64,000 nucleotides of DNA, taken from assembly GCA_036925085.1 (NCBI GenBank), contig JAUPFP010000032.1:1899501-1963500 (forward strand). Direction: 5' to 3'. Numbering within the stretch: the stretch's first letter is position 1; each line of letters begins with the position of its first letter. The stretch comes from Brachycybe producta. Its lineage: Eukaryota > Arthropoda > Diplopoda > Playtdesmida > Andrognathidae. This document shows, piece after piece, positions 9,325 to 61,719 of the stretch. The position numbers were made by a program, and so were the translations under genes. Under the pieces are notes generated by a model that saw only the letters and a program-made list of their open reading frames with translations, had not been told where the DNA came from and searched no databases.

Positions 9325-9893
9325 CGCTTGGTGGGACGAATCCTAAATTTTCTCGAATCCGAATCCTAAACGGTTCTTGAATCTTCCGAATGTCGAATCC
9401 TTCATATAAGGATCCTATATTATTATTCATTAAGAAAAGATACAAATAAATGAAATAATATTGAATGTTAAATTATTAATAATAAAAAACACAGTGTGGC
9501 ACTCAGGGTCGCCACAAGGTGATCCATTGGTGATCTCCGGGTACAACACCGAAATTGCAACAATCGCCGGTTTTTTTTTGGTTAGTCCACGCTTCCATTG
9601 GACGTTTTAACTCAATTGACGTCCAATAGAAGCATTCACTAACGAAAAAAAACCTGGCGATTGTTGCAATTTCGGTGTGGTATCCGGAGATTACCAGTAC
9701 CACCTTGTGGCGACCCCGAGTGCCACACTTGTTTTTTATTATTAATAATTAAATATTTAATATTATTTCATTTATTTGTATCTTCTTAATGAATAATATT
9801 GGATTCTTATATGAAGGATTCGAGAAATTCAAGGGATTCGAGAACCTTTTAGGATTCGAGAAAATTTAGGATTCGTCTGACCTCTAATTAAAA
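9325..9893. mobile_element. Head-to-head family B palindrome
   Basis: Two partial family B copies meet near 9600-9610 in opposite orientations. Both halves carry the ATATTATTC..TTAAGAA, AACACCGAAATTGCAACA and GAATCCTAAA words as mirror images, and the outer ends read GGTGGGACGAATCC and GGATTCGTCTGACCTC. Nested in the AGGGCTGGC element. Confidence 0.75.
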
Positions 9894-15764: not shown

Positions 15765-18700
15765 ATGGCGGGTAGGTTGTGTGTGTGTTTTCTATTTGTG
15801 CCAGCCCACTCTTATGTGTTTCTATGCATTTTTTTGTCGTTAATTTCTGCGTTTTTCTCTTCTTAATGGATTCTCATCATTTGCGTGCAATCGACGCTTC
15901 GTCAATTTATGCCTCTTGTGTGTGTTAATTGCAGACCTGCAGTTTCAAATTGAACTGGATATGGATTCAGAAACGAATGGACGAACAGGTAAAGAGAAAC
16001 GTTTTTATTAATAAGTGGATCAGTTCATTTTATTTAGCGTATTACACCAAATAGGGGGGGGTGAAGGTAGGAAGGAGGTTAGAGAGTAAAAAACCCCTTG
16101 TTTTATTAGACTTCGATGCATTTTTACTACGAACCCATGTTGGGTTTTTTTTTACTATGATTTGTTTTTGATGCATTCTTTAGATTAGCAATCGCTAACC
16201 TCTATGCGAGGGCCGTGAATCTTATGTAGGTTACGTTGAAGGCGCGAAATAAGGGCTGAAAAAAGCTTTAAAATGTCCTGCTTAGAGGCTAGAGATATTT
16301 CTCACGTTTTTTTTTTATTTCAAATGTTATTTAATGCGAAATTAAAATGTTAATTTGTTAAAAATGACTATTTTTTTTCGAGTTGTGAAGGTTTTGTTAT
16401 GTTTTTTTTTACGTTTAAAAATTTACATTCATTTCGATGGTTGAATTGAACGGTGCGTCTTGATTGGCTTGAAGGCCATAAAACATTTTGGCGCGCGGAG
16501 AAAAACGTTGGAATGAATAAGAAGGAGAGGAGGGAGTTGATGGAGGGAGAGAGACATAGAGAAAGAAGAGGCCTCGTAAAGGGTGGAGAGGGATAGAGGA
16601 GAGCGTTTACAAAAACGTGTTTACCGTTTCCGCAATGATTTGTGACGTCATGCGGAGTTTTTTTTTTTGCGGGGGGGGGGGCACACGATTGAAATCGATA
16701 TTGTTGACATCATTGCGCGGAAATCGCAAACGTAAACGCTTGCATCAACCGTTAGAAGGGAGAGAGGGAGGAGGGGGGAAGAAATTACAAGGACGAGTCT
16801 ATTCATTCTGGGTGTATTGCCTTTTTTTTTATTTTACTATCGTTATGGCGGAGTTCATTGAGAGTAAAAAGGGGGTGGTGGGTTTGCGGATGTCCCGTTC
16901 TATGGGATGCTGCGTGAAAGGTTTTTTTTAATGGTTTTACAGTGCGATGCACTGTCAGTATGTTGTTTTTGTGATGAGAGGGTGAGGCCAATTGTAGGGG
17001 AGGGGGGAGGGACAGGGGGAGGCGTCACTATGCCAACAACAGGGATCACAATGATGGAAAAATGGAGAGAGAGTGAGAGGGTAGTTTAGGGGGAACACTG
17101 AACTGCTGCGTTCATAGGCAATGTTGAAATTTTGGCGCATTCCTCTTTTTTTTTTTTGCCCTCCCCTCTCTTCCCCTCCCCTCTCTTCCCCCCCCCCTTT
17201 TTTTGCGAGTAGTTAGGGTTTTTTTTTGTGTGGTTAAATTGGTTAAGTTTGATCACGTGACCTTTTTTTTCTCGTTAGCTTGGTTAATTTTTTTTTTGTT
17301 CTGTTATCGTTTTGGATTCCAGAATAAATTTTGAGGGGGGGGGGTTTAGATCAGAGAGCCCCGCTAGCCTCTAAGCTAAGGTGGTAGAGTTGTTTAGCTT
17401 GTTCGAAAAGCGATAGCTAAGGCACGGATTTTTATGCAAATATCAAAAGGAAAATGTTTCTCAATCTGTGGCCCCAAGAGCCAATTGTGAAGTAACAATC
17501 TCGTTTACATCGAACAACAATTATGATTTTTTTTTTAACTCAAAATCAAAAACACGGGTTAGAGGCTAGAACTCTAGTTAAGTAGCCTTCATCCAGCCCT
17601 TTTTTGATTAGAAAAAGCATAATTGCTGGATGGTCTAATGATGATTACTTCATAATTGGCACTTGGGCTACAAATTGAGAAATATTTGCTTCGATATTGC
17701 ATGAAAATTCGAGCCCTAGCGATAGAGGCTAGGCGGAGCTGCTGCTAATTGGAAGAAATTCCAAAATTTATAATAAGTTATTAAAAATAAAGAGAAATGT
17801 GTATTTGTTTTAATAAATTTTGAAGCAGAGGAGGAGGAGGAGACAGAGAGGCTACAAAAAGGATGAGGTTGTTTTTGAGTTAAACAAAAAAAAAATGAGG
17901 GAGGGAGGGGGGGGGGGCACATGTGCAGCCTTCTGTTATTATTGGAAGGGGCCATTTCTCAAGGGGGGTAATTGTTAGAGTTTGGGAATAAATATTTATC
18001 ATGATTAAGGTGGCTGAATAGATATTTATTTTTTGTTCGGGGGGGCTCCCTCCAGATGGCGCCACAGCAGTGACTATTATATTCTATAACAATCGGTCTC
18101 TTCCCTCCACTCGCGGTTTTGGCTAGCGTTAGCCCATTAGTATTAGCAGAGCGCATGCGTATTGCCATCTTATCGTTTTATCTAGCAAAATGATTGCAGA
18201 TTTGCATTAGCAGCGCCATCTATTGATCACCAATGGAAACAATAGATGGTACTGCTAGCGTGCATCTACGATCGTTTTCCTATATAAAATAAGATGGTAA
18301 TGCGCAATGCGCTCTACAAATTCTAATGCGCTAGTCGGTTTTGAAAAAATTTCTTGTTTTTCACGTGAACGTTTTTCAGAAGAAACATTACGAAAAAATT
18401 CAAAGTGTTTTAGAAACTAGAATAGTTGGCGATAATGCTAAAAGTTTTTTCGAGGATGATATCGTTCAAAATAAACTTTTTATGACAGTTTGAAAAATAA
18501 GCGAAATGGAAAAACCCAAAACCGGGTCGTTTTCAAACTGCCATAAAATGTTTTATTTTGTAAGATATTGCCACGAAAATACTTTTAGCATCATCTTTTA
18601 CCATTCTAGTTTTTAAAAAAATTTGAATTTTTTTTCGTAATGTTGTTTCTAAAAAAACGTTCACTTGATGTTTTTGTGTCCAAAATTTTGCAAAAACAAC

Positions 18701-21700
18701 TATGGAACATAGCAGTATGCACTGCAGTGGCGCCGTCTGGGTGGACAAAAGCTAAATAAATTAATATTTTTAGATGACAAACTTGGGTAGAGGCTAGAAT
18801 TCATTGGCTAGTGAAGAAGCCAGGATGATGGCTGAGTCTAGGTAGAACTAGCCTCTGACTAGGTTCTTTGACTGCAAAACGCATCTGGTTTTATTACCTT
18901 AATCGTGATTATGGCAAAATTTGAGCAGCAAGATACAGTCGTTTGCCCCGCCCTTTTATGAGCGTCATGCCAAATATCAACCAATTAAAAATGGAAAAAG
19001 GCGGGGCATGTGACGGCAGACCAAATAACAAACCAACTAGAAGTTGCCGTTTCTCATAAAAGGGGCGGGGCAAACGACTGTCTTGCTGCGCACTCCTGTT
19101 TAGAGGCAAAGAGTTTGGACCTAGGTATTCATCATGTTAACCAAGATTACTAGCGTCTGGAGGCTTGTGTTTTTTCATAGCGCATGCGCATTCATTGCCA
19201 TCTCGGTTGGTTTGTATAGGAAAGTGATGGCAGATTTGCGTTAGTAGCGCCATCTATTGATGACCAATGGAAACTACGGTGCCCCTTATAAGACGTGGGC
19301 AGTTTCCATTGGTCATCAATAGATGGCGCTGCTAACGCAAATCTGCCATCACTTTCCTATACAAACCAACCGAGATGGCAATGCGCATGCGCTATGAAAA
19401 AACACAAGCCTCCAAACGCTAGTACCAAGATTGAAGATTTTTCATGGATTTTAGCCTCCAACCTGTCGTTTTGATTAAAAAGAAAGGCAGATTTTTTTCG
19501 CCTTAAGATAGTTTATGAAGAGCTGATTTTCGAACTCTTATTCTGTCTTTCAGAAGAGCAAAATTAAGAGAAACTAGAAAGGGTTTTAGAAACTAGACGG
19601 GAACATCTGAATCACTAAGTGTATTTTCTGGTTATCGACTGTCAAAATAAACTTTTTTCTAGACAAAAATTGAAACGTATTGTCTGAAACTCAAAGAAAA
19701 AGCTTATTTTGAAAGATGACAACATGAAAATGCTCTTAGCTGATTGGGCTACCCTTCTAGTTTCTAAAACATTTAAGTTTTCTCTTCATTTTGCTCTTGG
19801 AAAGACAGAATGATCAAGAGGGCGCGAAGAGACGTTTAGACTAGAGACCGAAATGGGCTCCCGTCAAGGAGGAAATCCCATCTCGTCCCATCCCATTGGA
19901 TGGGGGGGTCCCCCCCCCCAACAAGTAAACAAAAATAGATGGGACTCGTGGGATCTGTGAGGTGATGGGTCGGGATGGGATGAAGCCACAGGCAGTTAGA
20001 AATAGGCGAAAACTTCAGTTGGCTCCGCCCTTGTTATGACGAACGGTAACTTCTAATTGGTTGATTATGTGGTTCGACGTTGTAAAGGGCGGAGCATGTG
20101 ACGTCAGACTACATAACCAACCAATTAGAAGTTGCCGGTCGTCATAACAAGGGCGGAGCCAACTGAAGTTCTCCCCGATTTCTAACTGCCTGTTTTTTAT
20201 TCGGCCATGTTAATTATGCCATGTTTCGCGCACCATACTCTAATAATTAAATTATTGCTGCTACAAGAGGGCGCTTGCAATTATTTAATTATTAGAGTAT
20301 GGTGCGTGCAACATGGCATAATTAACATGGCCGATTAAAAGTCGACATGTCGAGAATTCTGGGAAAAATCGACATGTCGAGAATACAGGCATTTAGAAAT
20401 CGGGACGAACTTCAGTTGGCTCCGAGTAGAATGTTATTAACAACTTTGACAACGGAAAGAACTTGCTAGTAACATTTTGTTATCAAAATTTCTGCTATTA
20501 ACAAAGTTAGCAACAATATTATCGACATGTTAATGGAAAAAAATGATGGTGAAAGCGAAATGTTATTGACAAAAGTTAATAGCAAAATGTTATTGACAAA
20601 CGTTAATAGCAAAATGTTATTGACAAACGTTAATAGCAAAATGTTATTAACATTTCTAGGGCAAATGTCCCTTTTAGTTATCATTTCGTACGAAATCTTT
20701 ATTTTGCAACGAAATGAGGCGGAAATGACGTCAAAATCTATCTTTTCGTATAAATAAAATAATTCCGTACGAAATTTCGGTGTTAGCTTATTGTATTGTT
20801 TGGAACTAATTCCTAATTTGTCCATTTGTATTTTTTTTTAGTAGTCGATACGGGAGGTGGAACCTGGGATGTTGAAGACTCGGACAGTGACACTGTTTTA
20901 GGCGACGAGAACAATGGCGGAGCCGATGCGGGTGCGACCGATTCGCCAGCTTGGCTTTCTTCGAATCTGGAACATTTCGTTGATAGCGAGAATATATTTA
21001 ATAGGTAGGTAGGTGCTCTTGATTGTCTAATGTTATAATCTGGTTGAACCAACCAATCATCGTAATCCTATAGCTATTGGCTACCGGGGGGGGGGGGGGG
21101 GGGGGTATACGTCATGCGCGAGAGAGAAATAAATTTCTGAGTTTTAACTAAAAGTAAGATGAATCTCGAATCTCCCGGATCCTAAATGTTCTCGAATCCG
21201 AATCCTAAGAGGTTCTCGAATCCGAATCCTAAAAGGTTCTCGAATCCGAATCCTAAAAGGTTCTCGAATCCGAATCCTAAAAGGTTCTCGAATCCGAATC
21301 CTAAAAGGTTCTCGAATCCGAATCCTAAAAGGTTCTCGAATCCGAATCCTAAAAGGTTCTCGAATCCGTAGCCTAAAATGTTACCGAATCCTAAATTTTC
21401 ACGAATCCGAATCCTAAATTTTCACGAATCCGAATCCTAAGAGGTTCTCAAATCCGAATCCTAAGAGGTTCTCAAATCCGAATCCTAAGAGGTTCTCGAA
21501 TCCGAATCCTAAGAGGTTCTCGAATCCGAATCCTAAGAGGTTCTCGAATCCGAATCCTAAGAGGTTCTCGAATCCGAATCCTAAGAGGTTCTCGAATCCG
21601 AATCCTAAGAGGTTCTCGAATCCGAATCCTAAGAGGTTCTCGAATCCGTAGCCTAAAATGTTCTCGAATCCGAATCCTAAATTTTCACGAATCCGAATCC

Positions 21701-24700
21701 GAATCCTGAGAGGTTCTCGAATCCGAATCCTAAAAGGTTCTCGAATCCAAATCCTAAAAGGTTCTCGAATCCTTCATATAAGAATCCTATATTATTTATT
21801 AAGAAGATACAAATAAATGAAATAATATTAAATATTAAATTATTAATAATATAAAAACAAGTGTGGCACTCAGGGTCGCCACAAGGTGATCCGGGTACAA
21901 CACCGAAATTGCAACAATTGCCGGTTTTTTTTGTTAGTGAACGGTTTCTATTGGTCGTCAATGGAGTTAAAACTAATTTTACCAAAGTTTTTAACATTTT
22001 TTTTTAAGGTTAGGATTCGAAAGATTCGAAAAACGAAAAAAGCGGCAAAGATTCGAGTTTTCGAATCGCGAATATTTTTCTAGATTCGCGGGATTTGAGG
22101 ATTCGAATGTCTCATCTCTAGTTAAGAGGCTAAGATATACTTCCATCTTGAAAATAGCCTCGCAAGCGTTCAATGAATTATTAAAGAAGGTTCGAAATCG
22201 TTGATTTTTTTAAAAAAAACTCCATGTTAAATCCTATAGACAATACCGGATATCCGGCAAAGGCTGTCGGATATCCGTGCGGCATCTCTAAAATATTGTT
22301 ATTTTAAAGATTGTTATAAAATATTTTCTGTCACATGTTGTAAGAAAATTAGGTTACGTTATTTCGTTACTTCTCTCCGTGTTCTCGATAAACTTTTAAA
22401 ATTCCTTATAATCTTAGAAAGGCTATTAAAGTATTAATGACATATACACGGCCTTATTAGAAAACGTTGCCAACGCTAAGCTTTTCAGGTGAATAAACAA
22501 TCAAGGTAACCTTTTCAGCAACATGTTTAAGAGGCTACATCGGAAAAATACTTTGAAAAATCTCCACAAGGAGCGCTAAGCATCGTTTTTTTCTAATGAG
22601 CCCATAAACCTGATGTTAAAAGAAAAAATGTTAATTTTTAAAATACACACAGTCGCGGCGGCAATATGTTGATTTTTCATATTTAAACTTGTCCAATTTT
22701 GATGGTTCAAAGTGCAATGTGCACCTTAAATATATGCTGATCGAGTGATAGAATGACAAAAAATTGGTAAGTGCGGTTCTATTTTTAAAAATTATTTCAA
22801 AATCGCGAATTTCTAACTTTGTTAAACTCCATTGAGTTCGTCCAAATTAGAAAAGAACATCCATTAAAATTTGTTGGTAAAAATAATTTTAAAAAACCAC
22901 AACTAATCCACAGTGAAGCCAACACATTGGCGCACGTGCTGATTTTTTTCTGTTTTTTTCAAATTATTTTTAGGTATTTTTACGGGCATTTTAATGGATA
23001 TTTTTTTTGGCTACTAGCGCGTACTCAATAGAGTTTAACATAAGAGTTAGAAATTCGCGATTTTGAAATAATTTTTAAAAATAGAACCGCACTTACCAAT
23101 TTTTTGTCATTCTATCACGCGATCAGCATATATTTAAGGCGCACATCGCACTTTGAACCATCAAAATTGGACAACTCTAAATATGAAAAATAAACATATT
23201 GCCGCCGCGACTGCTGTGTATTTTAAAAATTAACGATTTTTCTTTAACATCGGGTCTATGGGCTCAGTAGAAAAACGATGCTAGCGCTCTTTGCGGAGAT
23301 TTCGCGAAGTAGTTTTGCAATGTAGCCTCTTGATATTTTCTACTGGTATTAAGGTAAATTCATGGCGTTTCGAATTGTCGTTTGGTTGCTACAGCCATTT
23401 GAGCAACTTGTACGTATGTCGGTTTTTATCGTGATCGCTTTTCGAGCTCGCGTGTTTAGTCGTACACTGAATATAGGGAACTTTCCAATGTGTTTCTAGG
23501 CAGATGGTTGCCAGGGGTCTGTTGGACACGTTGCGGTCGGTTGTCCACGTCCAAGCTGATGTGTCCACTGTGATTGCCGTTTTGCTGCGGCTGTCCGAAG
23601 ACACAGGTTAGGCCTTCTTTTCCATCGGAACTTCAGTTTTTTTTTGGTTTGAGATGGTTGTTCCTTTTTCCATTGTCGGGGGGGTTTTTTTTTTTGTAGA
23701 ACCGAGTGTGCGTGCCGAATTGGTCGAGCAAGTGCCACACATTGCATCGTTTTGCCGAGAACATGCAAATTACGGTTTAGTCGAGATCTTCTCTCGATAT
23801 CTGTTGCCGTTGGTCATCAAGTACATCGCCGATCCGAACAACCAAGTTCGAAGAGCAAGTCACTCCGCTCTTTTGGCGCTTCTCGAACAGAGTATCGTGA
23901 GCACAGGTTAGCCATTGTTTCGAACGATTTTTATCGAGTAAATCACTGCTTTTTCTAAGCAATTTGCTCGTTGTTTTTTGTTCTTCTCTCTTTTTATCTC
24001 GTAATGCAGACGAGTTGGAGGAACAGGTTTGTCCCGTTCTCTTTCACTTGATGGATGTCGACAACTTGGAACATTACCGAACGGAAGTTGTTACCGTAAG
24101 TATAAAATGTACACGTGTTTTTGTTCCCATTTCTGAAATTGTGGGCTGTTTTTTCGTAAGCAAAATCTGTTTGCTGACGAATTTATTCTCCTTATATGCC
24201 TGCAATTGGGTCGAGAGGCACGTGGCAGGAGGGAGGAGGGAGGATTCCCCGATCGTAAATGATTGTTATTTTATAGACAGAGTTTAGACATTATCGTCAA
24301 ATTGAATTCCTTCTAACACGGAACTATCCGCAGGATGAGAATTCCGTATTCGAAAAGACCAAAAATATGCATCGGTTTTTTGCTCGGATCGAAACAGAGA
24401 TGGCGATGGCGATCGTGATCGTTATTTACACTTCTCGGAGAAACGTCGGACGTTAAAGCGTGCTTCGAAACGATTACCCCGACGTCGGATGCTGAAATAG
24501 AATTTTTCCGGCTGTTCTTTGAAAGACATGGGTAGTGAGATGTGGCGGCCAATAAGATAGCCATCTCACTATCTTGTCTTTCAAGGAACGGACGGTTACG
24601 TTTGTCGAAATTGTCGGTCGGCGAAGCCCAAATGTGAGTTACAGCTTTTCGAGACGTCCGTACTTTTCGTTACTAAGGTACGCTGTTAATCGTGCTAGTC

Positions 24701-27700
24701 GTTTACGATTGTTGTATCGAATCGAGATATGTTCGTGTAAGGTAGGCGAGGAAAGAACCGTAGGAAATGGTCAGCTTTTTTGCTAAGAAAACATGTCGTT
24801 TCTGAGGGCAATTTTTGTGTTGTTTACCTCTTTCTATTTAACTTATGTCTTTGTGGTTTGGAAAGCTCTCGGAATCGGGTGTGGATGATGGCGCTTGCAA
24901 TCGGCATGAAGGTCGTAACATTATCAACCGCCAAATTTTAGTGCAAACATGTCAGGTTTTTTTTTTTTGGACAGCCAATCGAAGCAGTCGATGTACGCTT
25001 ATGCCGCAGTCACACTAGGCTGGTTTCCCAGCCGCTGGTTGCTGCTGGCTGGTTGTAGCGCTCTAGCAGCATAGTCTGAACTGCTACTAGCAGCTGCTTG
25101 CTTTCTCCAGCGGGCTAGTGATTTTAACAGCAGCTGGTGAAGTTGGACATGTCCAACTTTAGCAGCTACCAGCTGGTCATGTGACTCTTTTCTTGCTGCT
25201 GCCATCTAGTGTGAACTTTTTGTTGCTAGTAGTGGCACTAGTGGTAGTTGAAACTCCACTGCTTGGGTTAGTTGTTGTTAGTGTTTTTGCAAGATGGTGA
25301 TTGGATGACTTGCACTGCTAATACCAGCAGTGACTGGACAAGTGTGAACCCAAAGCAGCTGCTGCTTGCTGTTGCTGGCTTGTAAACCAGCCTAGTGTGA
25401 CTGCGCCTTTAATGTGAAAGATGGAGAATAACGAAGTTCGTGCCCTAGTAAAATATCCGGTGACGAAGGATTTAAACGTAACCGATATTACCGGCTTTAA
25501 AATAGCTTGCGTTTAATCCCTTCTTTGCTAAATATTTTATTACGGCACGAACTTCGTTATTCTCCATTTTTCACATTAAGCGGACATCGACTTCTTCGAT
25601 TGGCTGTCAAAAAAAAAAATAAACCTGACATATTTGCACTAAAATTTGGCGGTTGAAAATGTTACAACCTTGATGCCGATTGCAAGCGCCATCTATATCC
25701 GATTCCGAGAACTTTCCATACCACTCTCGTCTATATGTTCCCGTAGACTTCAGTATGTTTAAGAAAAATAGTGAAATGATTGCTGAACATTCTATTTAAA
25801 TAACATTAAAATACACATTCATAATCATAGCCGAAAAACGAACATCGTGGTTGAATATCAGAAAGGAATTTTAAATATTTAATGGCAATGGCGCCGTTTA
25901 TTAGCCAATATCTGCTGTGCAACTAGAAGCTCTCGTGTATCGTGGTTTGAATTTATTGAACAGTACGAGAAAAATTAGTGCGTAGCTTTTTTAGATAAAA
26001 GTAATCGTTTATGGCAAAAGTTTACGGTTTGCAGTAAGCTCAAGACTTATTCGGTTATTTTGTTTCGAAAGGTTTTAAGCACAAGTTGAAAAACAGCTTC
26101 GTCGACAACAACTTTTTTTGTAACCTAACTCGTACGGAGAGAAGTACTGCAACATCGTATCTACGAGTTCACACGATTCGAATTCGTACGGTTCGAGGAC
26201 TTGCTGTGTAAAATTACTCCGCACGCAGCCATTTTCTCGGTTGCGTGCAGAGTGATTTTTCCAAATTCAAATACAGAGGGACAAAAGTCTAATAGAAAGC
26301 ATGCGAAATGTGTTCTGGCCGGTTAGTATGTTGAAAAAACATTGAGAATTAAGGGAAATCGTCGGAACGTAACCGTTTACAACGGGACACAATCATGTCG
26401 TAAGTGGTCTTTTGTGAAACCTACATGGACAGCATTAAGGGTCACTAGATTAACTTTCGTGCATATTGTATCAAATTCCCTTTTATGGTTTAATGTACAA
26501 ATGACCTCGCTAAACTTTCGACTTTCGAAGTTCTACGTTTGCATCGAGTCTTTTTTTAAAGAGTATTGTTTTTGCAGGAGTTGGATTTTCGTGCAAGTTT
26601 TTGGCATCAAAACTGGTTTGTCATAGCCTGGGCTGACTGTCTATCACAGCCAGATTTGATGAGCAAAACCTTGCAAGCTTCGGTGTCCAATCGGCGTACA
26701 AGAAAAAGTTTTCGGTTTTATTTATTCGGACAAGAATGAAATTCAGCTGGTGGATGACTTTTCACGCGAAATTTTATGTGGCATTGGGTGCAGTCGTCAA
26801 AGGGGCTGTGGCATGCGTTAAGCGTTTACACATTCATATCACAGCCTTTTTGATGAGCTGGACTTAGTTTGCAATGCATCATCTTGTTCAACGGCAGCAG
26901 CTTTATCTGAAAATCTTCCTTTCTGAGTAACTACATTTTGGAGGCGGTCACTCAGTCGTCAAGTTGACTTTGGTTTGGTGGTAATTGAGCTCATATCACA
27001 GCCATCTTGACGAGCTGAGATTTCTCGTCCAGATCGTCGGGACTTGTGGACGTCGTTGGATCGACGAATACGTCGTAGTTTTCGTTCGAAAGGCTTCACT
27101 GTTGTCCGGCTCTCAAAGTGGCTGTCATGTGGCTTGCTTTCCGGAACATATCACAGCCAGCTTTGATGAGTTGGAATGCGGTGGTTATTTTGCTTCTGTG
27201 TAATGGAAATTTAAGTCTAAAATAATCTAAAACACAAAAATGATTTAAACATTTGCTTTATTTATGCAGTTTGCTCGTTAAGAGGCTTTTAAGGCATTTT
27301 TTTTTCAATTGTTGATTTCTATGCGCGCATAAAAGTGGGTGGAGACTGGAGAGTAGTCTTCTTTCATGGCTTTGGCACTAAAATGGCAGCTAAATTGGCA
27401 GCACTAATGGTTGCGTTCTTAATTGATCGTAAGTCTAAATCGTAGGATCTAACTGACCATTATTTTTATTGTCTACTTTTAATTAAAGTATGTTTAAGAA
27501 AGTTTGCCCTGGGGTGACCACGCAAGGAACATTAGACTATTGCCAAGACTATTATTAGTTTCCCCCCCCCCCCCCCCCCCCCCCCCGAGGTTTATACTAC
27601 AATTAGTGTTGTAAATTTAAAAAAAAAGTGTTTTTAAACGTGATTTTTTTTAAAAACGTGTTTTTTTATATAAAAAAAACCGTGAATTATTTTAAAATGT

Positions 27701-30700
27701 GTTTTTAAAAAACGGTGGAAAATTTTTTTTAAAAAAAAACGGCGGGAAAAGAAAAACGCAAGAAAGAAAGAAGATTGATCAGTTTTAAGTACATGTTCCC
27801 GAGGTTACTGAATGATTCCGTTAGAAATGTAAATTAAAAATGTTTGTTTTTTTGAAAAAAATCATGTTTTGTTTAAAAAAAAAAAGCTGGGGTGGGGGAG
27901 GAAATGCAAAGAATAAGCCTTTCTTTAGGTATGTTGGTGGTGAATCCTGATTCCTGATTGGTTTCAGTTTTACGATAAGGAAAAACTACAAAGTTTACAT
28001 TAAGCAGTGAAATGCAAATTAATGAATTAAGAATATAAATTATGTCAGATTCGTGAATTAAGTCATTTTAATTAACTTCACTAAATATGATACAAAATCT
28101 GAAAATCATTTTTTGAATTTTTTTTAAAAAAATGTTTGACACTTAATAAACTTTGGTAACTTAAAAATAAACATGATAGTAAAAAAACACGTTCATTTTC
28201 AACGCTAGTAGGGTTGGAAAATGAAAAAAAAATCTCGGTAAAAAAGTGTGATCTGTACGGCCGATTTTGAAAGTTTTTTAAAATAAAAGCGCACTTACCA
28301 ATTTATTGTAATTCTATCACTCGATCAGCATATATTTAAGGTGCACCTTGCACTTTGAACCATTAAAATTGGACAACTTTAAATATGAAAAATAAACATA
28401 TTGCCGCCGCAACTGTGTATTTTAAAAATTAACGTTTTTCTTTAACGTCGGGTTTATGGGCTCAATAGAAAAACGATGCTAGCGCTCTTTGTGGAGATTT
28501 TTCAAAGTAATTTTGTGGGCGCTTTAATGTGCAGAATGCACTAGAACTAGGGCTAATGTGTGGCTTCCCGTATCGTATTGTTTTTTGAAAAAATTGTAAT
28601 GTTTGTATTGATAGCAAATTAGTTTCCCCAGACTTGTATGGAGAACCTTGAAAAACCACGATGCCATTTAGTGCGAAAACTATGAAGAAGAAGTGATACA
28701 CACTGTGACTCCAGCCACTTTAAAGTACTATTTTGTTGTTGTCATTGCTAATTTGCTGCAATTCTTCTGTCATACTGATGTACATTTTTTATTTATGTTT
28801 GCCATTATGTGGAAAGTTTTCGTTTTGTAACTTTTTTGGGATTACAATTTTTTTTTTGTAAATTTGTATTTTTTTTTGTACGAATTCTGCAAGAAATGAA
28901 GGGTAAATATACATGGGGCACTAGATAAGTAGTCTTGTCTGATGTAGAAGTGATACTCTTGTTACAATTACAATTAGTACTCTGCAAGCAGCCAAATAGG
29001 CCTATGGCAGAGAGACATAAAAGTCCAGATGCAGCATTAAGCATTGTCAAGCACATATACATGCACATATATAAAAACAAAATAAATATACGAATGTCAA
29101 TAATACAAAACAAAATTCTCCCCATTCACCACTTCTTCCTCAGGAAGAGAGTTCCATTGTCTTATAACTCTAGGGGCGAAGGCCAATATTATGAATCTGT
29201 CCTAGCAACTGCACTTGTTGCACTCAAATCTCGTGCACATGTTGGGACATGCTTTGGTGGTTATACTGCAGTGTCGTGCCAGTCGCTTCGTTAAGTCTCA
29301 GGCAGATCACATCATTTGTGAAGAGTGTCACACAAAAATAGACAATTCATATTTGGGTTACTCACTTTTGACAGGCCCATTTCCTCGTGTAAAATGTTGA
29401 TGACTGTCAGTTCTTTGGCAATATCTGACGTAGGATGGGACATTCGAATCCCGCGAATCTTGAAAAATATTCGAGATTCGAAAACCTGGAATCTTTGCGC
29501 TTTTTTATCTTTCGAATCCTAACCAAAAAAAAAATTGTTAAAAACTTTCGTAAAATTAGTTTTAACTCCATTGACGTCCAATAGAAGCGTTCGCTAACAA
29601 AAAAAACAGCAATTGATTCAATTTCGGTGGTCGGACCCAGATCACCAATATCACCTTGTGTTCCACACTTTTTTTATTATTAATAATTTAATATTTAATA
29701 TTATTTCATTTATTTGTATCTTAATGAATAATATAGGATTCTTATATGATGGATTCGAGAGATTCGAGAACCTTTTAGGATTCGGATTCGTGAATATGTT
29801 GGATTCGAGAGATTCGAGAACCTTTTAGGATTCGGATTCGAGAATATGTTGGATTCGTCCCACCTCTAATCTAACGCTTTATTTTGCCTGTCCTTTAAAA
29901 TCATTCCTTTGATTTTTATCATCTCCATTGGTATATTTGGCCCGTAACTTGAAAAAGAGTCGATGAAGAGTCTCCCATACACGGTGCCGTAAGCAGTCGT
30001 GAATAACATTTTTCTCTCTTGTCACGGAGGAGCGGTGCTCCGAGTGTGAGTTGTCCATTTTCGTGTGACACTCTTCGCCAGTGTTGTGATACAACATATG
30101 ATAAAAATCCAAAATGAAGAAACGGCTTAATTAAAACTTTTATTACTAAGGCTCGGATTTTCATGCAATATCATAGCAGATGTTTCCCATTCTGTGGCCC
30201 AAATGCCAATTAAGAGGTTTTATTATCAGCGTTAGAGCAACTTCAATTATGCTTTTTCTAATCAAAAAGGTTGGTTAGAGGCTAGATGTTTGGTTACTAT
30301 TAGTTGTCAACTAGAGTTCTAGCCTCTAGCCAGTCTTTTTGATTAGAAAAAGCTTAATGATTACTTCACAGTTGGCATTTGAGACACAAGTTGAGAAACA
30401 TTTGCTTGACATTGCGTAAAAATCCGAGCTCTATCATTGTTGTATGTAATATTGAAACTTAACTGGCGGATGTGTGCCATGTAAGAAATATATAATTGCT
30501 TCTAAAATAAAAACAGGTGAATTTACAGGCTTTAAAAAGCTGTATCGTCAACACTGTGCAGCAGTGTTCTGCTTTGGGGCAGTTCGTCGACATTTGGGTT
30601 CGGATTTTCATGCAACGTCAAGGCAAAATGTTTCTCAATCTGTGGCCTATGAGTCGTTGTAACAATCCCCGTTGAGAACAACCAACAATTACGATTTTTT

Positions 30701-33700: not shown

Positions 33701-36700
33701 GCCCTTGTTATGACGACCGGCAACTTCTAATTGGTTTGTTGTGTGGTTCGACGTTGAAAAGGGCGGAGGATGTGATGTCAGACTACATAACCAACCAATT
33801 AGAAGTTGCCCGTCGTCATAACAAGGGCGGAGCCAATTGAAGTTCTCTCCTACTTCTAACTGCCTGTATTGTGCTTATGATTCCCGATCCACATCAAGCT
33901 GAAACGCCCGAAGCGCAAATAAAACGGAAACTCAAATGTTTTGAGACAAATTGGCAACAATTCAAAAAACATTTCTGCGACTTTCGTGTTGTTTTGTCTG
34001 CAATTTCGCAAACCTATGTCCCATCATAAGTCGGTAAACATGAAAAGGTTTTTGTCTCGGTTCTTCTTCGCAACATTTTGTCAACTTGTCCGTTCAGTGC
34101 GGACAGTTAGTATTAAAACAATAACAGAACAGTTGCGTAGTTTATGTAGGACACCGAAAGAAACAAAAACAAACGTAAATTTGTTTGTGTCGTGTCGTGT
34201 CACAAATTTGTTGTAGATATGTCTCGAGTACTCTGGACAGTTTTGTTTTCAAAATCTGTTTTTTCTAGCGTTTTTGTTGCGATTTTGTCTCGAACTCGTG
34301 TTGCACTTTTGTCAGCTTGGTGTGTGTGGGTTGGCATATAAGAAGTGGACCAAAAATGTACAGTAAAACCTTGGATCGCGAGCATAATTCGTTCCGGAGA
34401 CGTGTTTGTAATCTAAAGCACTCGTATATCAAAGCGAACCGTCGGCTCGGTTGTGGTCACGTGACGCTCGGCAGACAAAGCGTATACGTACTACTCGTAT
34501 TGCAAGACTACGCTCGTTTATCAAGTTAAAATTTATTTAAAAAAATTTGCTCGTCTTGCAAAACCACTCACAGACACGGTTACTCGCTATTTCGTGGGGG
34601 TTTTTTTATTTTTGGTTTTAACAGTTGTAATTATAATTGTTTTTTTTTTCTTCCGTTTTTAGCTTTCGTCTTTTGCCTCGCTTTGTTCGGACGATAATTG
34701 GGGTGTTCGCAAAGTTTGTGCCGACGTTTTTGTGTCGGTCGCTTGCGTTTGCTCGCCGATAACGAGGCGCTATCATTTGTCGCCTCTTTTTGTGTCGTTA
34801 CTTTCTGACGAATCACGATGGGTTCGTATGGCTGCTTTTCAGGCACTCGGGCCGTTCATTTCAACTTTCGGAGATCCAAATTCACAAAAGTTATACTATG
34901 ACGAAGAGGGAAATGTCCACGTTGCTACAACGATGTGAGTTGATGAGAAATATAAGAAAAATTGTGTTTTTTTTTTTAGTCAAGGTAGGTTAGAGGCTAG
35001 ACGTCTAGTTACTATCAGTTGTCGACTAGAAAATTCGAGCCTCTAACCGAGTGTTTTTTATTGAAAAAAATCATAATTGTTGGTTGATCTCTAAACGAGG
35101 ATTTGCAATTGGCTCGTGGGCCATAGATTGAGAAGCATTTTCATGCGAAATCAAGCAAGTGTTTCTCAATCTGTGGCCCAAGTGCCAATTGTGAAGTACC
35201 GGTAATCATCATCATTAGAACAACTGCAATTATGCTTTTTTCTAATCAAGGTTGGTTAGAGGCTAGCCGTCTGGTTACTATCAGTTGTCAACCGGAGAAT
35301 TGTAGCCTCTAACCAGGTGTTTTTGATAGAAAAATATCAATTGTTGGTTGATCTCTAAACGAGGATTCACAATTGGCTCGTGGGCCACAGATTGAGAAAC
35401 ATTTTCATGCAAAATCAAGCAAATGTTTCTCAATCTGTGGCCCAAGTGCCAATTGTGAAGTAATCATCATCATTAGAACAACTGCAATTATGCTTTTTTC
35501 TAATCAAGGTTGGTTAGAGGCTAGCCGTCTGGTTACTATCAGTTGTCAACCGGAGAATTGTAGCCTCTAACCAGGTGTTTTTGATAGAAAAATATCAATT
35601 GTTGGTTGATCTCTAAACGAGGATTCACAATTGGCTCGTGGGCCACAGATTGCGAAACATTTTCATGCAAAATCAAGCAAATGTTTCTCAATCTGTGGCC
35701 CAAGTGCCAATTGTGAAGTAATCATCATCATTAGAACAACTGCAATTATGCTTTTTTCTAATCAAGGTTGGTTAGAGGCTAGCCGTCTGGTTACTATCAG
35801 TTGTCAACCGGAGAATTGTAGCCTCTAACCAGGTGTTTTTGATAGAAAAATATCAATTGTTGGTTGATCTCTAAACGAGGATTCACAATTGGCTCGTGGG
35901 CCACAGATTGCGAAACATTTTCATGCAAAATCAAGCAAATGTTTCTCAATCTGTGGCCCAAGTGCCAATTGTGAAGTAATCATCATCATTAGAACAACTG
36001 CAATTATGCTTTTTTCTAATCAAGGTTGGTTAGAGGCTAGCCGTCTGGTTACTATCAGTTGTCAACCGGAGAATTGTAGCCTCTAACCAGGTGTTTTTGA
36101 TAGAAAAATATCAATTGTTGGTTGATCTCTAAACGAGGATTCACAATTGGCTCGTGGGCCACAGATTGAGAAACATTTTCATGCAAAATCAAGCAAATGT
36201 TTCTCAATCTGTGGCCCAAGTGCCAATTGTGAAGTAATCATCATCATTAGAACAACTGCAATTATGCTTTTTTCTAATCAAGGTTGGTTAGAGGCTAGCC
36301 GTCTGGTTACTATCAGTTGTCAACCGGAGAATTGTAGCCTCTAACCAGGTGTTTTTGATAGAAAAATATCAATTGTTGGTTGATCTCTAAACGAGGATTC
36401 ACAATTGGCTCGTGGGCCACAGATTGAGAAACATTTTCATGCAAAATCAAGCAAATGTTTCTCAATCTGTGGCCCAAGTGCCAATTGTGAAGTAATCATC
36501 ATCATTAGAACAACTGCAATTATGCTTTTTTCTAATCAAGGTTGGTTAGAGGCTAGCCGTCTGGTTACTATCAGTTGTCAACCGGAGAATTGTAGCCTCT
36601 AACCAGGTGTTTTTGATAGAAAAATATCAATTGTTGGTTGATCTCTAAACGAGGATTCACAATTGGCTCGTGGGCCACAGATTGCGAAACATTTTCATGC

Positions 36701-39700
36701 AAAATCAAGCAAATGTTTCTCAATCTGTGGCCCAAGTGCCAATTGTGAAGTAATCATCATCATTAGAACAACTGCAATTATGCTTTTTTCTAATCAAGGT
36801 TGGTTAGAGGCTAGCCGTCTGGTTACTATCAGTTGTCAACCGGAGAATTGTAGCCTCTAACCAGGTGTTTTTGATAGAAAAATATCAATTGTTGGTTGAT
36901 CTCTAAACGAGGATTCACAATTGGCTCGTGGGCCACAGATTGCGAAACATTTTCATGCAAAATCAAGCAAATGTTTCTCAATCTGTGGCCCAAGTGCCAA
37001 TTGTGAAGTAATCATCATCATTAGAACAACTGCAATTATGCTTTTTTCTAATCAAGGTTGGTTAGAGGCTAGCCGTCTGGTTACTATCAGTTGTCAACCG
37101 GAGAATTGTAGCCTCTAACCAGGTGTTTTTGATAGAAAAATATCAATTGTTGGTTGATCTCTAAACGAGGATTCACAATTGGCTCGTGGGCCACAGATTG
37201 AGAAACATTTTCATGCAAAATCAAGCAAATGTTTCTCAATCTGTGGCCCAAGTGCCAATTGTGAAGTAATCATCATCATTAGAACAACTGCAATTATGCT
37301 TTTTTCTAATCAAGGTTGGTTAGAGGCTAGCCGTCTGGTTACTATCAGTTGTCAACCGGAGAATTGTAGCCTCTAACCAGGTGTTTTTGATAGAAAAATA
37401 TCAATTGTTGGTTGATCTCTAAACGAGGATTCACAATTGGCTCGTGGGCCACAGATTGCGAAACATTTTCATGCAAAATCAAGCAAATGTTTCTCAATCT
37501 GTGGCCCAAGTGCCAATTGTGAAGTAATCATCATCATTAGAACAACTGCAATTATGCTTTTTTCTAATCAAGGTTGGTTAGAGGCTAGCCGTCTGGTTAC
37601 TATCAGTTGTCAACCGGAGAATTGTAGCCTCTAACCAGGTGTTTTTGATAGAAAAATATCAATTGTTGGTTGATCTCTAAACGAGGATTCACAATTGGCT
37701 CGTGGGCCACAGATTGAGAAACATTTTCATGCAAAATCAAGCAAATGTTTCTCAATCTGTGGCCCAAGTGCCAATTGTGAAGTAATCATCATCATTAGAA
37801 CAACTGCAATTATGCTTTTTTCTAATCAAGGTTGGTTAGAGGCTAGCCGTCTGGTTACTATCAGTTGTCAACCGGAGAATTGTAGCCTCTAACCAGGTGT
37901 TTTTGATAGAAAAATATCAATTGTTGGTTGATCTCTAAACGAGGATTCACAATTGGCTCGTGGGCCACAGATTGAGAAACATTTTCATGCAAAATCAAGC
38001 AAATGTTTCTCAATCTGTGGCCCAAGTGCCAATTGTGAAGTAATCATCATCATTAGAACAACTGCAATTATGCTTTTTTCTAATCAAGGTTGGTTAGAGG
38101 CTAGCCGTCTGGTTACTATCAGTTGTCAACCGGAGAATTGTAGCCTCTAACCAGGTGTTTTTGATAGAAAAATATCAATTGTTGGTTGATCTCTAAACGA
38201 GGATTCACAATTGGCTCGTGGGCCACAGATTGCGAAACATTTTCATGCAAAATCAAGCAAATGTTTCTCAATCTGTGGCCCAAGTGCCAATTGTGAAGTA
38301 ATCATCATCATTAGAACAACTGCAATTATGCTTTTTTCTAATCAAGGTTGGTTAGAGGCTAGCCGTCTGGTTACTATCAGTTGTCAACCGGAGAATTGTA
38401 GCCTCTAACCAGGTGTTTTTGATAGAAAAATATCAATTGTTGGTTGATCTCTAAACGAGGATTCACAATTGGCTCGTGGGCCACAGATTGCGAAACATTT
38501 TCATGCAAAATCAAGCAAATGTTTCTCAATCTGTGGCCCAAGTGCCAATTGTGAAGTAATCATCATCATTAGAACAACTGCAATTATGCTTTTTTCTAAT
38601 CAAGGTTGGTTAGAGGCTAGCCGTCTGGTTACTATCAGTTGTCAACCGGAGAATTGTAGCCTCTAACCAGGTGTTTTTGATAGAAAAATATCAATTGTTG
38701 GTTGATCTCTAAACGAGGATTCACAATTGGCTCGTGGGCCACAGATTGCGAAACATTTTCATGCAAAATCAAGCAAATGTTTCTCAATCTGTGGCCCAAG
38801 TGCCAATTGTGAAGTAATCATCATCATTAGAACAACTGCAATTATGCTTTTTTCTAATCAAGGTTGGTTAGAGGCTAGCCGTCTGGTTACTATCAGTTGT
38901 CAACCGGAGAATTGTAGCCTCTAACCAGGTGTTTTTGATAGAAAAATATCAATTGTTGGTTGATCTCTAAACGAGGATTCACAATTGGCTCGTGGGCCAC
39001 AGATTGAGAAACATTTTCATGCAAAATCAAGCAAATGTTTCTCAATCTGTGGCCCAAGTGCCAATTGTGAAGTAATCATCATCATTAGAATAACTGCAAT
39101 TATGCTTTTTTCTAATCAAGGTTGGTTAGAGGCTAGCCGTCTGGTTACTATCAGTTGTCAGCCGGAGAATTGTAGCCTCTAACCAGGTGTTTTTGATAGA
39201 AAAAATCATAATTGTTGGTTGGATTCGCAATTGGCTCTTGGGCCACAGATTGAGAAACATTTTGCTTGATCTTGCATGAAAATCCGCACCTTAGTCATGA
39301 ATCTTAAAATTTAATTGTAGTCGTATTTTGTTTTGTTTCGTTTCGCTTTTGGCTAGTGACGATTTAAGTTCCAATACGGACTTGTTGATCGATAGCCGAG
39401 ATAGTGGCTTTATCAGCCAAGAAGGAAGTAGCCCTTCGTCTCCTTCGGAAGATAGTGCCATGAACGAATGTTTAAAAGAAAGTATTTCCTCGGTCGTTGA
39501 CGATACAACGGAAAAAGAGAGTACCGTTGAAGTCTGCGACGAAGCTCAGGGACATTTTAACAGTTTTTTATTTTGGAGGCACCCGATCCTCGACCTCGAC
39601 GTGGTGACGGCACATAAAGAAAAAGAGTTGCCTCGTGCCTGCGAATATCAAGGATCGGGAATGTACGACGAGTGGTGGCGTCGTAATTATTTAACGGAAA

Positions 39701-50625: not shown

Positions 50626-53600
50626 TTAACTTCCAAGGTCAACTTGGAGTCCGTCGTATTTTACGTCTCCATATGGTTCGACGGTTGGAACGGCATCTTC
50701 CAAAGATGTGTTGACGTCAACCGGAATCAGAGTATTGATGTTCCGCTGCATTTGAAGACCCAAAACTACCGCATTGCCATCCTCGGTCAGTTTGCAGGCT
50801 GTTGGCCTTTCGTCGGCCATGAACGACGCGAGACAAACACCTTTTTTTTTTTTTGTTACAAAAAAAAGAAAAGTCAATGTCTTGTTTCTTCGCAACAATT
50901 TGTTTCAACGTTAAGGCACATCCATGTCAAGCTGACAAAGCACAAACAAATCGAAACTCATGTCTTTCGAGACAAATTGGCAACAATTCTGAAACATTTC
51001 TGCAACTTGTGTGTTTTGTTTTGTCTGTAATTTCACAACAAAGTTTAGAAACAAAAACAAAATAGATAATGTTTCGAGACAAATTGGCAACAATTCTGAA
51101 ACATTTCTGAAACTTTTGTGTTTTGTCTGCAATTTCACAATTGTCTCGAGTTACAGCTGACAGTTGTTTCAGGTTTGTTTTGTTTTCAAAATCTGCTTTT
51201 TTTTCTGGCGTTTTTGTCTCAAACTCATGTTGCACTTTTGTCAGTTTGATGTGGTGTTCGGCGTTTAAATTTCAGGCTTTTTACCTTTGTTGAGATCCCA
51301 AAGACGGATTGCGAGATCTCGACCTTTCGGTAGATCCGCAGTGAGGCAACGTTGCCCCGACTTACCAAGTTGTATCATTGTGACTGCAGCCGTGTGTCCT
51401 TTCAAACAGGACCTGAAATAGGGATAAATAATAAAAAAGGTGCATTAGTCTCACTGCAGTGAAAACCGTTTAACACGAAAAACATCGGATAACACGAATT
51501 ATGTTCGGTCCGGTCTCTAAAGCCTGGTATTCACCAAAAGACCGAGCATGAGCAAACATTCCCGTCTCAACAACAACATCAACATCTCCCGTCCATTAGA
51601 AGGCGGTAGCACGAGCAAACATTTGCTCGTGCTACCGCCTTCTAATGGACGGGAGATCGGATCGGAAGAATCAGTAGAACCGGTTAGACAATTACTGCTA
51701 CTGATAGAACCGGTTCGCCAGTATAGGTCGAACGGATGAGAACTGGTTCCGAACCCGAGTAGATTCGGTTTGGTTCTAGCCTTTGCGACCTGTTACTAAT
51801 GTGCTGCGCAAATCAGCTATTGGTAACTGGTTCGAATCGATTCTGATCAGTTTGTCTACGCAGTCTGCAAAACCTGCTAGTGAATCTGCAAAATTCACCA
51901 TCTTAAAATGTACTGAGAATTTTGGCAGATTCACTAGCAGTTTGGTGGTTTTGCAGCTTGCCTAGGCAATCTGCAGATTGACTGATTCCGTAGATTGACT
52001 AACGTGCAGTTATACACTGTAGGCTTATAATGTTAGTTTGAATTTTGACTGCTTGGTGGCGCATTTACAAATGGAATGCTCCCATTGGTCGAAAAGTAAG
52101 TAGCACACCTGTTATATCTATCAGCCTTGAGATCGAATAATTGATCAGAACCAATTTCTGAAAACTCGCGAACCGCCAACCGATTAAACCCGGTCGCGAA
52201 CCGATTAAACCGGGTCGCGAACCGATTAAACCGGGTCGCGAACCGATTAAACCGGGTCGCGAACCGATTAAACCGGGTCGCGAACCGATTAAACCGGGTC
52301 TCGAACCGATTAAACCGGGTCTTGAACCGATTAAACCGGGTCGCGAACCGATTAAACCGGGTTGCGAACCGAGTAGAAACTGATTCGGTTCTACCCGTTG
52401 TCACCTGTAGACAGGGGTGACCCTTTTAAAAAGAAAATTACAGGAATGTTTGCACGAACAGACTCTTTATTTCTGGTCATTTGTATCTAGAGTCATTTCT
52501 ACAATGGAATTTACTTCCAGAGAATGCTGCGCATGTGCAACATGTTATGATTTGGAGAATTCTTAGGGGTTCGACTCGGACAAGGCATATTTGCAAATTG
52601 CATGGGGGAATTTGTTATAACAGGTACTAAGGTCCCCTTGCCACAGGCCCTCTCGGCCGCTTGCGGGGAGTACTTATTCAAAATTCGAATACCTGCAGGC
52701 ACCCGTAATGAGATCCCAGACGAGAATGTTGCTATCGAGAAGCCCGTTAACGACGCAGCCACCTTCCGACGATATCGCCACACTGCACGTACTCGACTCC
52801 GGTTTCCACTTCTTGAAAAGGGTTCCGTTTTGCAAGTCGTACACGATAATGAAGTTTGGCGTCGGATCGTTAACTTCCTGCAGATTTGACAACAAAAACT
52901 TTTAGAAATGACATACGAGGCGGGAAATCAAAAAGTTTCGCGATCTATAGCTAAGAAGGAATTTTTCTATTGGCTTGAAATTCCTAGTGCGTTCTAGCGG
53001 CTTGAATCGATTCAGTTTATACGATTAATCGGAACCAAAAAAAATCAATTATCCCGATTATCGATTCAGAATCGGACATCCTTAATGTCAACAGAAAAAA
53101 AAATCAATTGAAGAATCGTGTGGTTTTGAATTTAGTCGTTCGATTATTACGATATCATGAATCGAGTCCGCTTATACGATTAATCAGAACAAAAAATCGA
53201 ATTTCCGATTAATCGAATCGGAATCGGGCCTTCTTAATATCAGCAAGAAAAAAATCAAATAAAGAATCGTGTAGGGTTTTGAATCGAATAATTCGATTTT
53301 TTTTTATGATAGCTTGAATCGATTTAATTTATACGATTAATCGGAAGAATAAAAAATTGAATTCCCGCTTAATCGAATAGGAATCAGATGTTCTTAATAT
53401 CAGTTGATTCGTGTAGGGATTTGAATTGATTCATTCGATTTGTATGATAGAATGAACCTGTTAAATATACACGATTAATTGGAACCAAAAAATCGATTCT
53501 CCTATAGAAAGAATCGGAATCGCGGTGGCATCCCTAAGCTAGACCGTGAACTTTTTTGATTTCCAATTGTACTAAACATCCGATGCCACAAACCTGACAA

Positions 53601-61686: not shown

Positions 61687-61719
61687 CTAAACAAAACCAC
61701 CAAAGAAAACATACGTTAT

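What the first reader, a model, noticed from the sequence alone, without database searches (positions are those of the whole stretch)
34984..39293. MITE-born 258-bp satellite with two alternating unit types in a PPP4R1 intron
Fifteen units have exactly 258-base spacing and are nearly identical, except for one base (35395 + 258n) that is A or C. In order the units read A C C A A C C A C A A C C C A. Units 1-4 and 5-8 share ACCA, which suggests block duplication. The base lies in the stem of a 23-bp hairpin, so A units have a perfect stem and C units have one mismatch. The unit is a permuted family D MITE that also occurs singly in this window. The array shows an element becoming a satellite inside a gene, with two states being maintained or spread together.
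Basis: partly seen in the sequence, partly recalled or inferred. Interest (0 to 1): 0.72.

Follow-up and report, generated by a model that had tools for sequence, protein, structure and literature searches.

The report
Jumping-gene remnant turned tandem repeat
A small mobile DNA element in an intron has been copied head-to-tail fifteen times into a nearly uniform 258-base repeat, a fresh and unusually legible example of a known route by which mobile elements become satellite DNA.

Summary
Diverged copies flank them; together they fill 98% of one intron of a HEAT-repeat gene.

The monomer is a permuted hAT-type MITE: termini TAGGGTTCGG/CCGAACCCTA, about 319 bp, 8-bp target duplications (10 of 24 sampled copies perfect), 835 terminus matches genome-wide. 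Each unit boundary is a right end fused to a left end at an ATTTT microhomology, the palindrome centre being lost; this makes the hairpin. The junction was found only here (16 of 19 pattern hits; the other 3 are not tandem junctions), so the array grew locally. Ten other loci carry two or three head-to-tail copies: six with other centre-deleted junctions, two intact, two of other structure.

C is derived (A in 80 of 80 terminal-repeat matches outside the array). 'Two maintained states' is not supported: one mutation plus multi-unit duplication suffices. Four duplications from ACA give the order (P about 0.04-0.07, test chosen afterwards); the ACCA-ACCA match alone is not significant (P = 0.35). 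MITE-to-satellite conversion is known. Ordinary in kind, instructive in detail.

The parts
34935..39356 (+). Host intron, 4422 bp, GTGAGT...CTAG; 34970-39293 (97.8%) is MITE-derived
   Evidence: Splice sites and in-frame joining of the flanking exons; HEAT repeat in the upstream exon
34970..35241 (+). Unit 0: diverged left flanking unit (89%), left end missing; carries the same fused junction; last 40 bases identical to the core
35242..39111 (+). Core array: 15 units of exactly 258 bp, two variable positions in all
35366..35459 (+). Fused right-TIR/left-TIR junction of unit 1 (repeats every 258 bp): hairpin with the A/C site at 35395
   Evidence: Fold -62.2 (A) and -57.7 (C) kcal/mol; junction pattern found only at this locus
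39112..39293 (+). Unit 16: right flanking partial unit; like the core for 93 bases with one change, then diverged; ends in a right terminus ...GCATGAAAATCCGCACCTTA
30147..30433 (+). Single dispersed copy of the same MITE family (no matching 8-bp flank repeat, 2 of 8)
17425..17718 (-). Single dispersed copy; 8-bp flank repeat 7 of 8 (GCGATAGC/GCGATAGA)

Best explanation
A hAT-type MITE of about 319 bp inserted in a small intron and became a head-to-tail pair. The pair's junction was a near-perfect palindrome (right TIR, spacer, left TIR). A deletion between two ATTTT repeats, one inside the right TIR and one near the left end, removed the palindrome centre and left a 258-bp permuted unit with an asymmetric hairpin. 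One derived unit then expanded recently between older, diverged end units by a few multi-unit unequal exchanges, carrying an A-to-C mutation along. No function is needed. Shown: element ends, 8-bp target duplications, junction structure, its confinement to this locus, derived state of C, diverged ends. Inferred: the order of events and the deletion and exchange mechanisms.
For: TIRs and 8-bp duplications: 10 of 24 sampled copies perfect at 8 bp; 1 of 24 at 5 bp and 0 of 24 at 6, 7, 9, 10 and 11. Family size: 835 terminus matches, 0 in the control. The junction is in all 15 units and in unit 0; the other 3 of 19 hits are two shortened right ends of family copies (L061, L063) and one place without family sequence (L062). 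Possible intermediates elsewhere: intact head-to-tail pairs (L018, L041) and centre-deleted pairs or triplets (L009, L010, L014, L020, L050, L051). Both end units have the ATCATAATTG form that the core lost; 6 of 7 regex matches in other copies have it and none has the core form. Unit 16 groups with the core at 98/93. Core mean pairwise difference is about 0.26% (arithmetic), against about 11% to unit 0. Four duplications give the A/C order.
Against: Unit 0 groups with the core only weakly (80/83) and its highest identity is to a dispersed copy, L011, at 87% (the program warns that the bootstrap had not settled). The left terminus and a matching target duplication are missing here, so the founding insertion is not documented. 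The first pair at this locus is not seen. The two units at L014, and the third units at L009 and L010, do not group with their neighbours. Four centre-deleted loci (L009, L010, L014, L050) have similar breakpoints, so these may not be four independent events.
Confidence: 0.77

Rival explanations
1. Rolling-circle origin: an excised MITE circle, its ends joined imprecisely, was replicated into a multimer and reinserted in the intron.
For: Units are nearly identical and share one imprecise end-to-end junction. A rolling-circle origin is reported for Bari1 clusters (PMC9659126, section 4 of its text).
Against: The junction is also in the strongly diverged unit 0, and the array ends in a right terminus, so the junction seems older than the expansion and sits within an old insertion. 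Head-to-tail loci elsewhere have only two or three units.
Confidence: 0.12
2. Assembly artefact: unit number or the A/C order is wrong because the assembler collapsed or expanded a repeat or mixed haplotypes.
For: Units are near-identical and reads were not available.
Against: The repeat (4.3 kb) has diverged, distinct ends and an aperiodic A/C order. The contigs are long (C1 22 Mb, C3 13.6 Mb, the window's own C32 2.8 Mb), which suggests long reads (inference).
Confidence: 0.07
3. Selected hairpin: the repeated hairpin is transcribed with the host gene and processed into small RNA, and the two hairpin types are kept for function.
For: The hairpin is strong (z about -12) and lies on the gene's strand; mir-71 and two mir-2 precursors lie on the same strand in the window.
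Against: No Rfam family reaches its gathering score over the array. The stem follows from fused TIRs. The A/C order needs only duplication. No expression data.
Confidence: 0.03

Closest known systems
MITE-derived satellites of Xenopus (Xstir, Hikosaka and Kawahara; miDNA4, Scalvenzi and Pollet), as described in the review PMC12628747 (passages read; the originals not read)
   Same: Tandem repeats tied to a MITE; stem-loop excision (Xstir) and microhomology (miDNA4) steps proposed
   Different: There the repeats come from internal MITE sequence (Xstir) or a repeat captured inside the MITE (miDNA4); here the unit spans nearly the whole element and the join is a fused right and left TIR
Tandem hAT MITEs at Atlantic cod inversion breakpoints, gadMor-hAT-1784 (PMC12368964, abstract and one results section read)
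   Same: hAT-type MITE, tandem accumulation at particular loci
   Different: 167-169-bp units within about 600-bp TIRs, at inversion breakpoints; here one intronic array of nearly whole elements
Double insertion of TEs as satellite seeds (McGurk and Barbash 2018; seen only as a reference-list entry; paper not held; a study of tandem P elements with target-duplication-sized junctions is summarised in PMC9659126)
   Same: Tandem pairs separated by a target-duplication-sized spacer, like L018 (8 bases)
   Different: This array has lost the spacer and the palindrome centre
Tetris TIR-220 satellite of Drosophila virilis (PMC4079207, abstract read)
   Same: Satellite built from an inverted-repeat element
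   Different: Repeats internal to foldback TIRs, amplified in beta-heterochromatin

Membership tests
hAT-type MITE | Terminal inverted repeats at both ends | tested here: met
   TAGGGTTCGG.../...CCGAACCCTA in dispersed copies; 835 terminus matches, control 0
hAT-type MITE | 8-bp target-site duplication | tested here: met
   10 of 24 perfect at 8 bp; mean match 0.78 against 0.50 for mismatched pairs; no signal at 5-7 or 9-11 bp
hAT-type MITE | Short element without transposase, moved by an autonomous hAT with the same ends | tested here: inconclusive
   Length about 319 bp. hAT transposase domains (PF05699) are present in the genome, 149 matches (after seven unanswered tries), but in the 12 loci held none is bracketed by these termini; terminus-like matches occur in 3 of 12 (L066, L068, L073), with at most 4 mismatches allowed and about 1.5 kb of flank on each side
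Satellite DNA | Head-to-tail tandem units of constant length | tested here: met
   15 units of 258 bp
Satellite DNA | Homogenised core with diverged edges | tested here: met
   Two variable positions in 15 units, about 11% divergence in unit 0
Satellite DNA | Long arrays, several loci, usually heterochromatic | tested here: inconclusive
   This junction was found at one intron only and the core is 3.9 kb; chromatin cannot be tested and genome searches are capped. Better called an incipient or satellite-like array
microRNA precursor | Match to a curated family, or processed small RNA | tested here: not met
   No Rfam gathering-level match over the array; small-RNA data not available

The most novel reading that the evidence does not exclude
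In this MITE family, deletion of the palindrome centre at a tandem junction may be the gate to satellite formation. Intact head-to-tail pairs stay rare and do not grow, while centre-deleted pairs become stable and can amplify. The genome would then hold the whole series: intact pair, trimmed pair or triplet, and a 15-unit array with TIR hairpins transcribed in an intron.
Probability: 0.22. Interest if true: 0.55.

Novelty: new member of a known kind. Interest (0 to 1): 0.35.

Why it matters
How dispersed elements turn into satellites is usually inferred from old, scrambled arrays (general knowledge). Here one genome seems to hold successive stages, with junctions readable to the base and a core so young that a single mutation marks the exchanges. 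It could be used to measure how far multi-unit exchange outruns mutation, and to test whether palindrome trimming comes before expansion.

Tried and rejected
Rejected: 'two alternating unit types being maintained'. C is derived and the mix is explained by duplications. Rejected as evidence: the ACCA-ACCA match (P = 0.35), the longest repeat (5 units, P = 0.30) and the run count (9), all as chance would give. Adjacent single-unit duplication alone is rejected by reasoning: one mutation would then give one block of C units, and four are seen.

Led nowhere: papers on mir-71/mir-2 with PPP4R1 (two incidental papers in the listings); an autonomous hAT partner (transposase domains exist, none shown to have these ends); the double-insertion paper (not held); the organism (not identified). 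A paper search for MITE, tandem array, intron, palindrome and satellite together listed 3 papers; I took no passage from two of them.

Limits: the genome searches with DNA score only 40 candidates each, so copy numbers are lower bounds. The loci were chosen by similarity to the unit (40 stretches, L048 overlapping L010) or by pattern hits and terminus hits (12 stretches; 3 more), so the frequency of tandem copies in the family is not estimated. The trimmed-junction search has a background: its control, the pattern read backwards, matched 2 on each strand against 20 for the pattern; it asks for exact arms, so C units and worn copies are missed. Of its 20 places, 7 are A units of this array; of the other 13, 9 contain family sequence and 4 (C6, C10, C22, C36) do not. 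Three of the family loci (L052-L054) could not be read as head-to-tail pairs, and L049 is a complex case: its hairpin is followed by a right terminus and then by a second, partial unit. The 24 target-duplication pairs are 22 insertions from L009-L048 plus 2 in the window. Five rows shown (L015, both of L018, L038, L041) were dropped before the count, and the other stretches, whose ends I had not listed, were never entered. L048 was left out of the tree and of the state counts. The 80 of 80 A count is of terminal-repeat matches, so a copy can count twice.
Full report
Observation. The window holds 15 units with exactly 258-base spacing from 35242 to 39111. Tandem Repeats Finder scores the array 8183 at period 258. 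A diverged unit 0 (34970-35241, 89% over the unit) lies to the left; its last 40 bases are identical to the core. A diverged partial unit (39112-39293) lies to the right, matching the core for 93 bases with one change before it diverges. Together these occupy 4324 of the 4422 bases of one intron (34935-39356), whose flanking exons join in frame with GT...AG borders; the upstream exon encodes a HEAT repeat. The name PPP4R1 fits but rests on recall.

What the unit is. Forty stretches around matches listed by the genome search (L009-L048; L048 overlaps L010) show dispersed copies of one element with long terminal inverted repeats, TAGGGTTCGGATTTTCATGC.../...GCATGAAAATCCGAACCCTA. An intact copy used as reference is 319 bp. 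Of 24 copies with both ends read (22 fetched, 2 in the window), 10 are flanked by perfect 8-bp direct repeats. The mean match at 8 bp is 0.78 against 0.50 for mismatched pairs, and lengths 5-7 and 9-11 show nothing. By established knowledge this is the signature of the hAT superfamily. A 30-base terminus pattern has 835 matches genome-wide with up to 3 mismatches, and none for the reversed control. The family also occurs singly in the window (17425-17718, 30147-30433), with two fragments. The genome does contain hAT transposase domains (149 matches to PF05699, 150 candidates scored). In the 12 loci held, with about 1.5 kb on each side, no domain is bracketed by these termini, so the autonomous partner is not identified.

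The junction. Read in element phase, each unit starts at ATTTTCATGC and runs to GAGAAAC, so the boundary between units is a right TIR fused to a left TIR. Compared with intact ends, about 30 bases of the right end and 10 of the left end are missing. The fusion lies at ATTTT, which occurs both inside the right TIR (ACATTTTGCTTG, as in the array's own right end) and near the left end (GGATTTTCATGC). A 25-base junction pattern with up to 3 mismatches gives 19 hits: the 15 units, unit 0 (2 mismatches), and three with 3 mismatches. I fetched these three: two are shortened right ends of family copies (L061, L063), one has no family sequence (L062), and none is a tandem junction. The junction is therefore specific to this locus at that sensitivity.

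Other loci. Orientation was checked with the asymmetric inner part of the element. Head-to-tail family copies, two or three each, are present at ten other loci: L009, L010, L014, L018, L020, L025, L041, L049, L050 and L051. Two keep both ends with a short spacer (L018, 8 bases; L041, about 11). The exact intact junction occurs once in the genome, at L018, in a search that allowed no mismatch. Six have lost the palindrome centre (L009, L010, L014, L020, L050, L051), with breakpoints other than this array's; four of these (L009, L010, L014, L050) resemble one another (ATTTGC or ATTTAC running into the left-TIR inner sequence, ending in CAAGC or CAAAGC), so they may be recurrent or copied. L025 and L049 have other structures, with a right terminus followed by a unit that lacks its left end. 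A search for closely spaced TIR arms found 20 places: 7 are A units of this array, 9 others contain family sequence and 4 do not. Its reversed control found 2. In a tree of the right-hand segment (58 rows; bootstrap not settled), two units at L009, two at L010 and the pair at L018 are sisters with high support, which fits local duplication. The third units at L009 and L010 and the pair at L014 are not so grouped.

History of this array. The right flanking unit groups with the core (98/93). Unit 0 does so only weakly (80/83) and its highest identity is to a dispersed copy (L011, 87%). Unit 0 nevertheless carries the locus-specific junction, which makes that junction older than the core's expansion. 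Both end units have ATCATAATTG where the core has ATCAATTG. In the 51 fetched stretches then held (L048 left out), a regex for this stretch found seven matches, six with the end-unit form and none with the core form. The core thus most likely descends from one derived unit and expanded between older neighbours. Its mean pairwise difference is about 0.26% (arithmetic).

The A/C site. A is the state in 80 of 80 terminal-repeat matches outside the array and in both end units. C is best read as one derived mutation, now in 8 of 15 units. The ACCA|ACCA repeat alone is expected by chance (P = 0.35), as are a longest repeat of 5 (P = 0.30) and 9 runs. A further test counts the fewest tandem block duplications that generate the order: four from ACA (ACA, ACCA, ACCAACCA, ACCAACCACAACCA, final). 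54 of 1500 random orders need four or fewer, and 107 of 1500 with A at both ends. This is weak support for multi-unit duplication, from a test chosen after seeing the order. Selection or co-maintenance of two states is not needed.

Mechanism. The best reading has four steps: a head-to-tail pair, microhomology deletion of the palindrome centre, local unequal exchange, and recent expansion. The first two are inferred from forms seen at other loci; the last is read from the core and its edges. A rolling-circle insertion of an excised circle is possible, but it explains poorly why a diverged unit shares the junction and why a right terminus closes the array. An assembly error cannot be excluded without reads. 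A function of the hairpin as small RNA has no evidence here.

Known kinds. MITE-to-satellite conversion is documented: Xenopus Xstir and miDNA4 (review PMC12628747, passages), cases listed in PMC9659126 (two sections read), Tetris in Drosophila (PMC4079207, abstract) and tandem hAT MITEs in cod (PMC12368964, abstract and one section). The review PMC12628747 also describes a stem-loop excision model close to the one proposed here. This is therefore a new member of a known kind, in an incipient state: short, at one intron. Its value lies in the series of forms within one genome.

Noticed in passing
24514-24590, 26790-26862, 27107-27175 (+): mir-71 and two mir-2 precursors (Rfam gathering level) on the same strand as, and apparently in introns of, the same HEAT-repeat gene.
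   Followed up: partly
1907-1951, 9337-9383, 21175-21772, 29744-29857: A minisatellite of the type CCTAAAGGTTCTCGAATC (period about 23-24, seen in either orientation) recurs at several places in the window.
   Followed up: no
L025 (C1:21955500-21957300): Two head-to-tail units of the same MITE that lack the left TIR, joined at CCGAACCCTA|ATCATCATC, beside an inverted full element.
   Followed up: partly
53534-61715 (-): Minus-strand reading frames with NPHP3-type NTPase, NWD1-like helix-turn-helix and WD40 matches, perhaps one gene.
   Followed up: no
L009, L010 (C3:3769000 and C3:4042000): Two three-unit arrays about 270 kb apart on one contig share a similar trimmed junction (ATTTACAAATCAAGC or ATTTGCGAATCAAGC), possibly one event that was later copied.
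   Followed up: partly
genome G000: 149 matches to the hAT dimerisation domain (150 candidates scored), some in open frames of more than 800 codons and several with equal scores, so some hAT transposase genes may be recently active in this genome.
   Followed up: no
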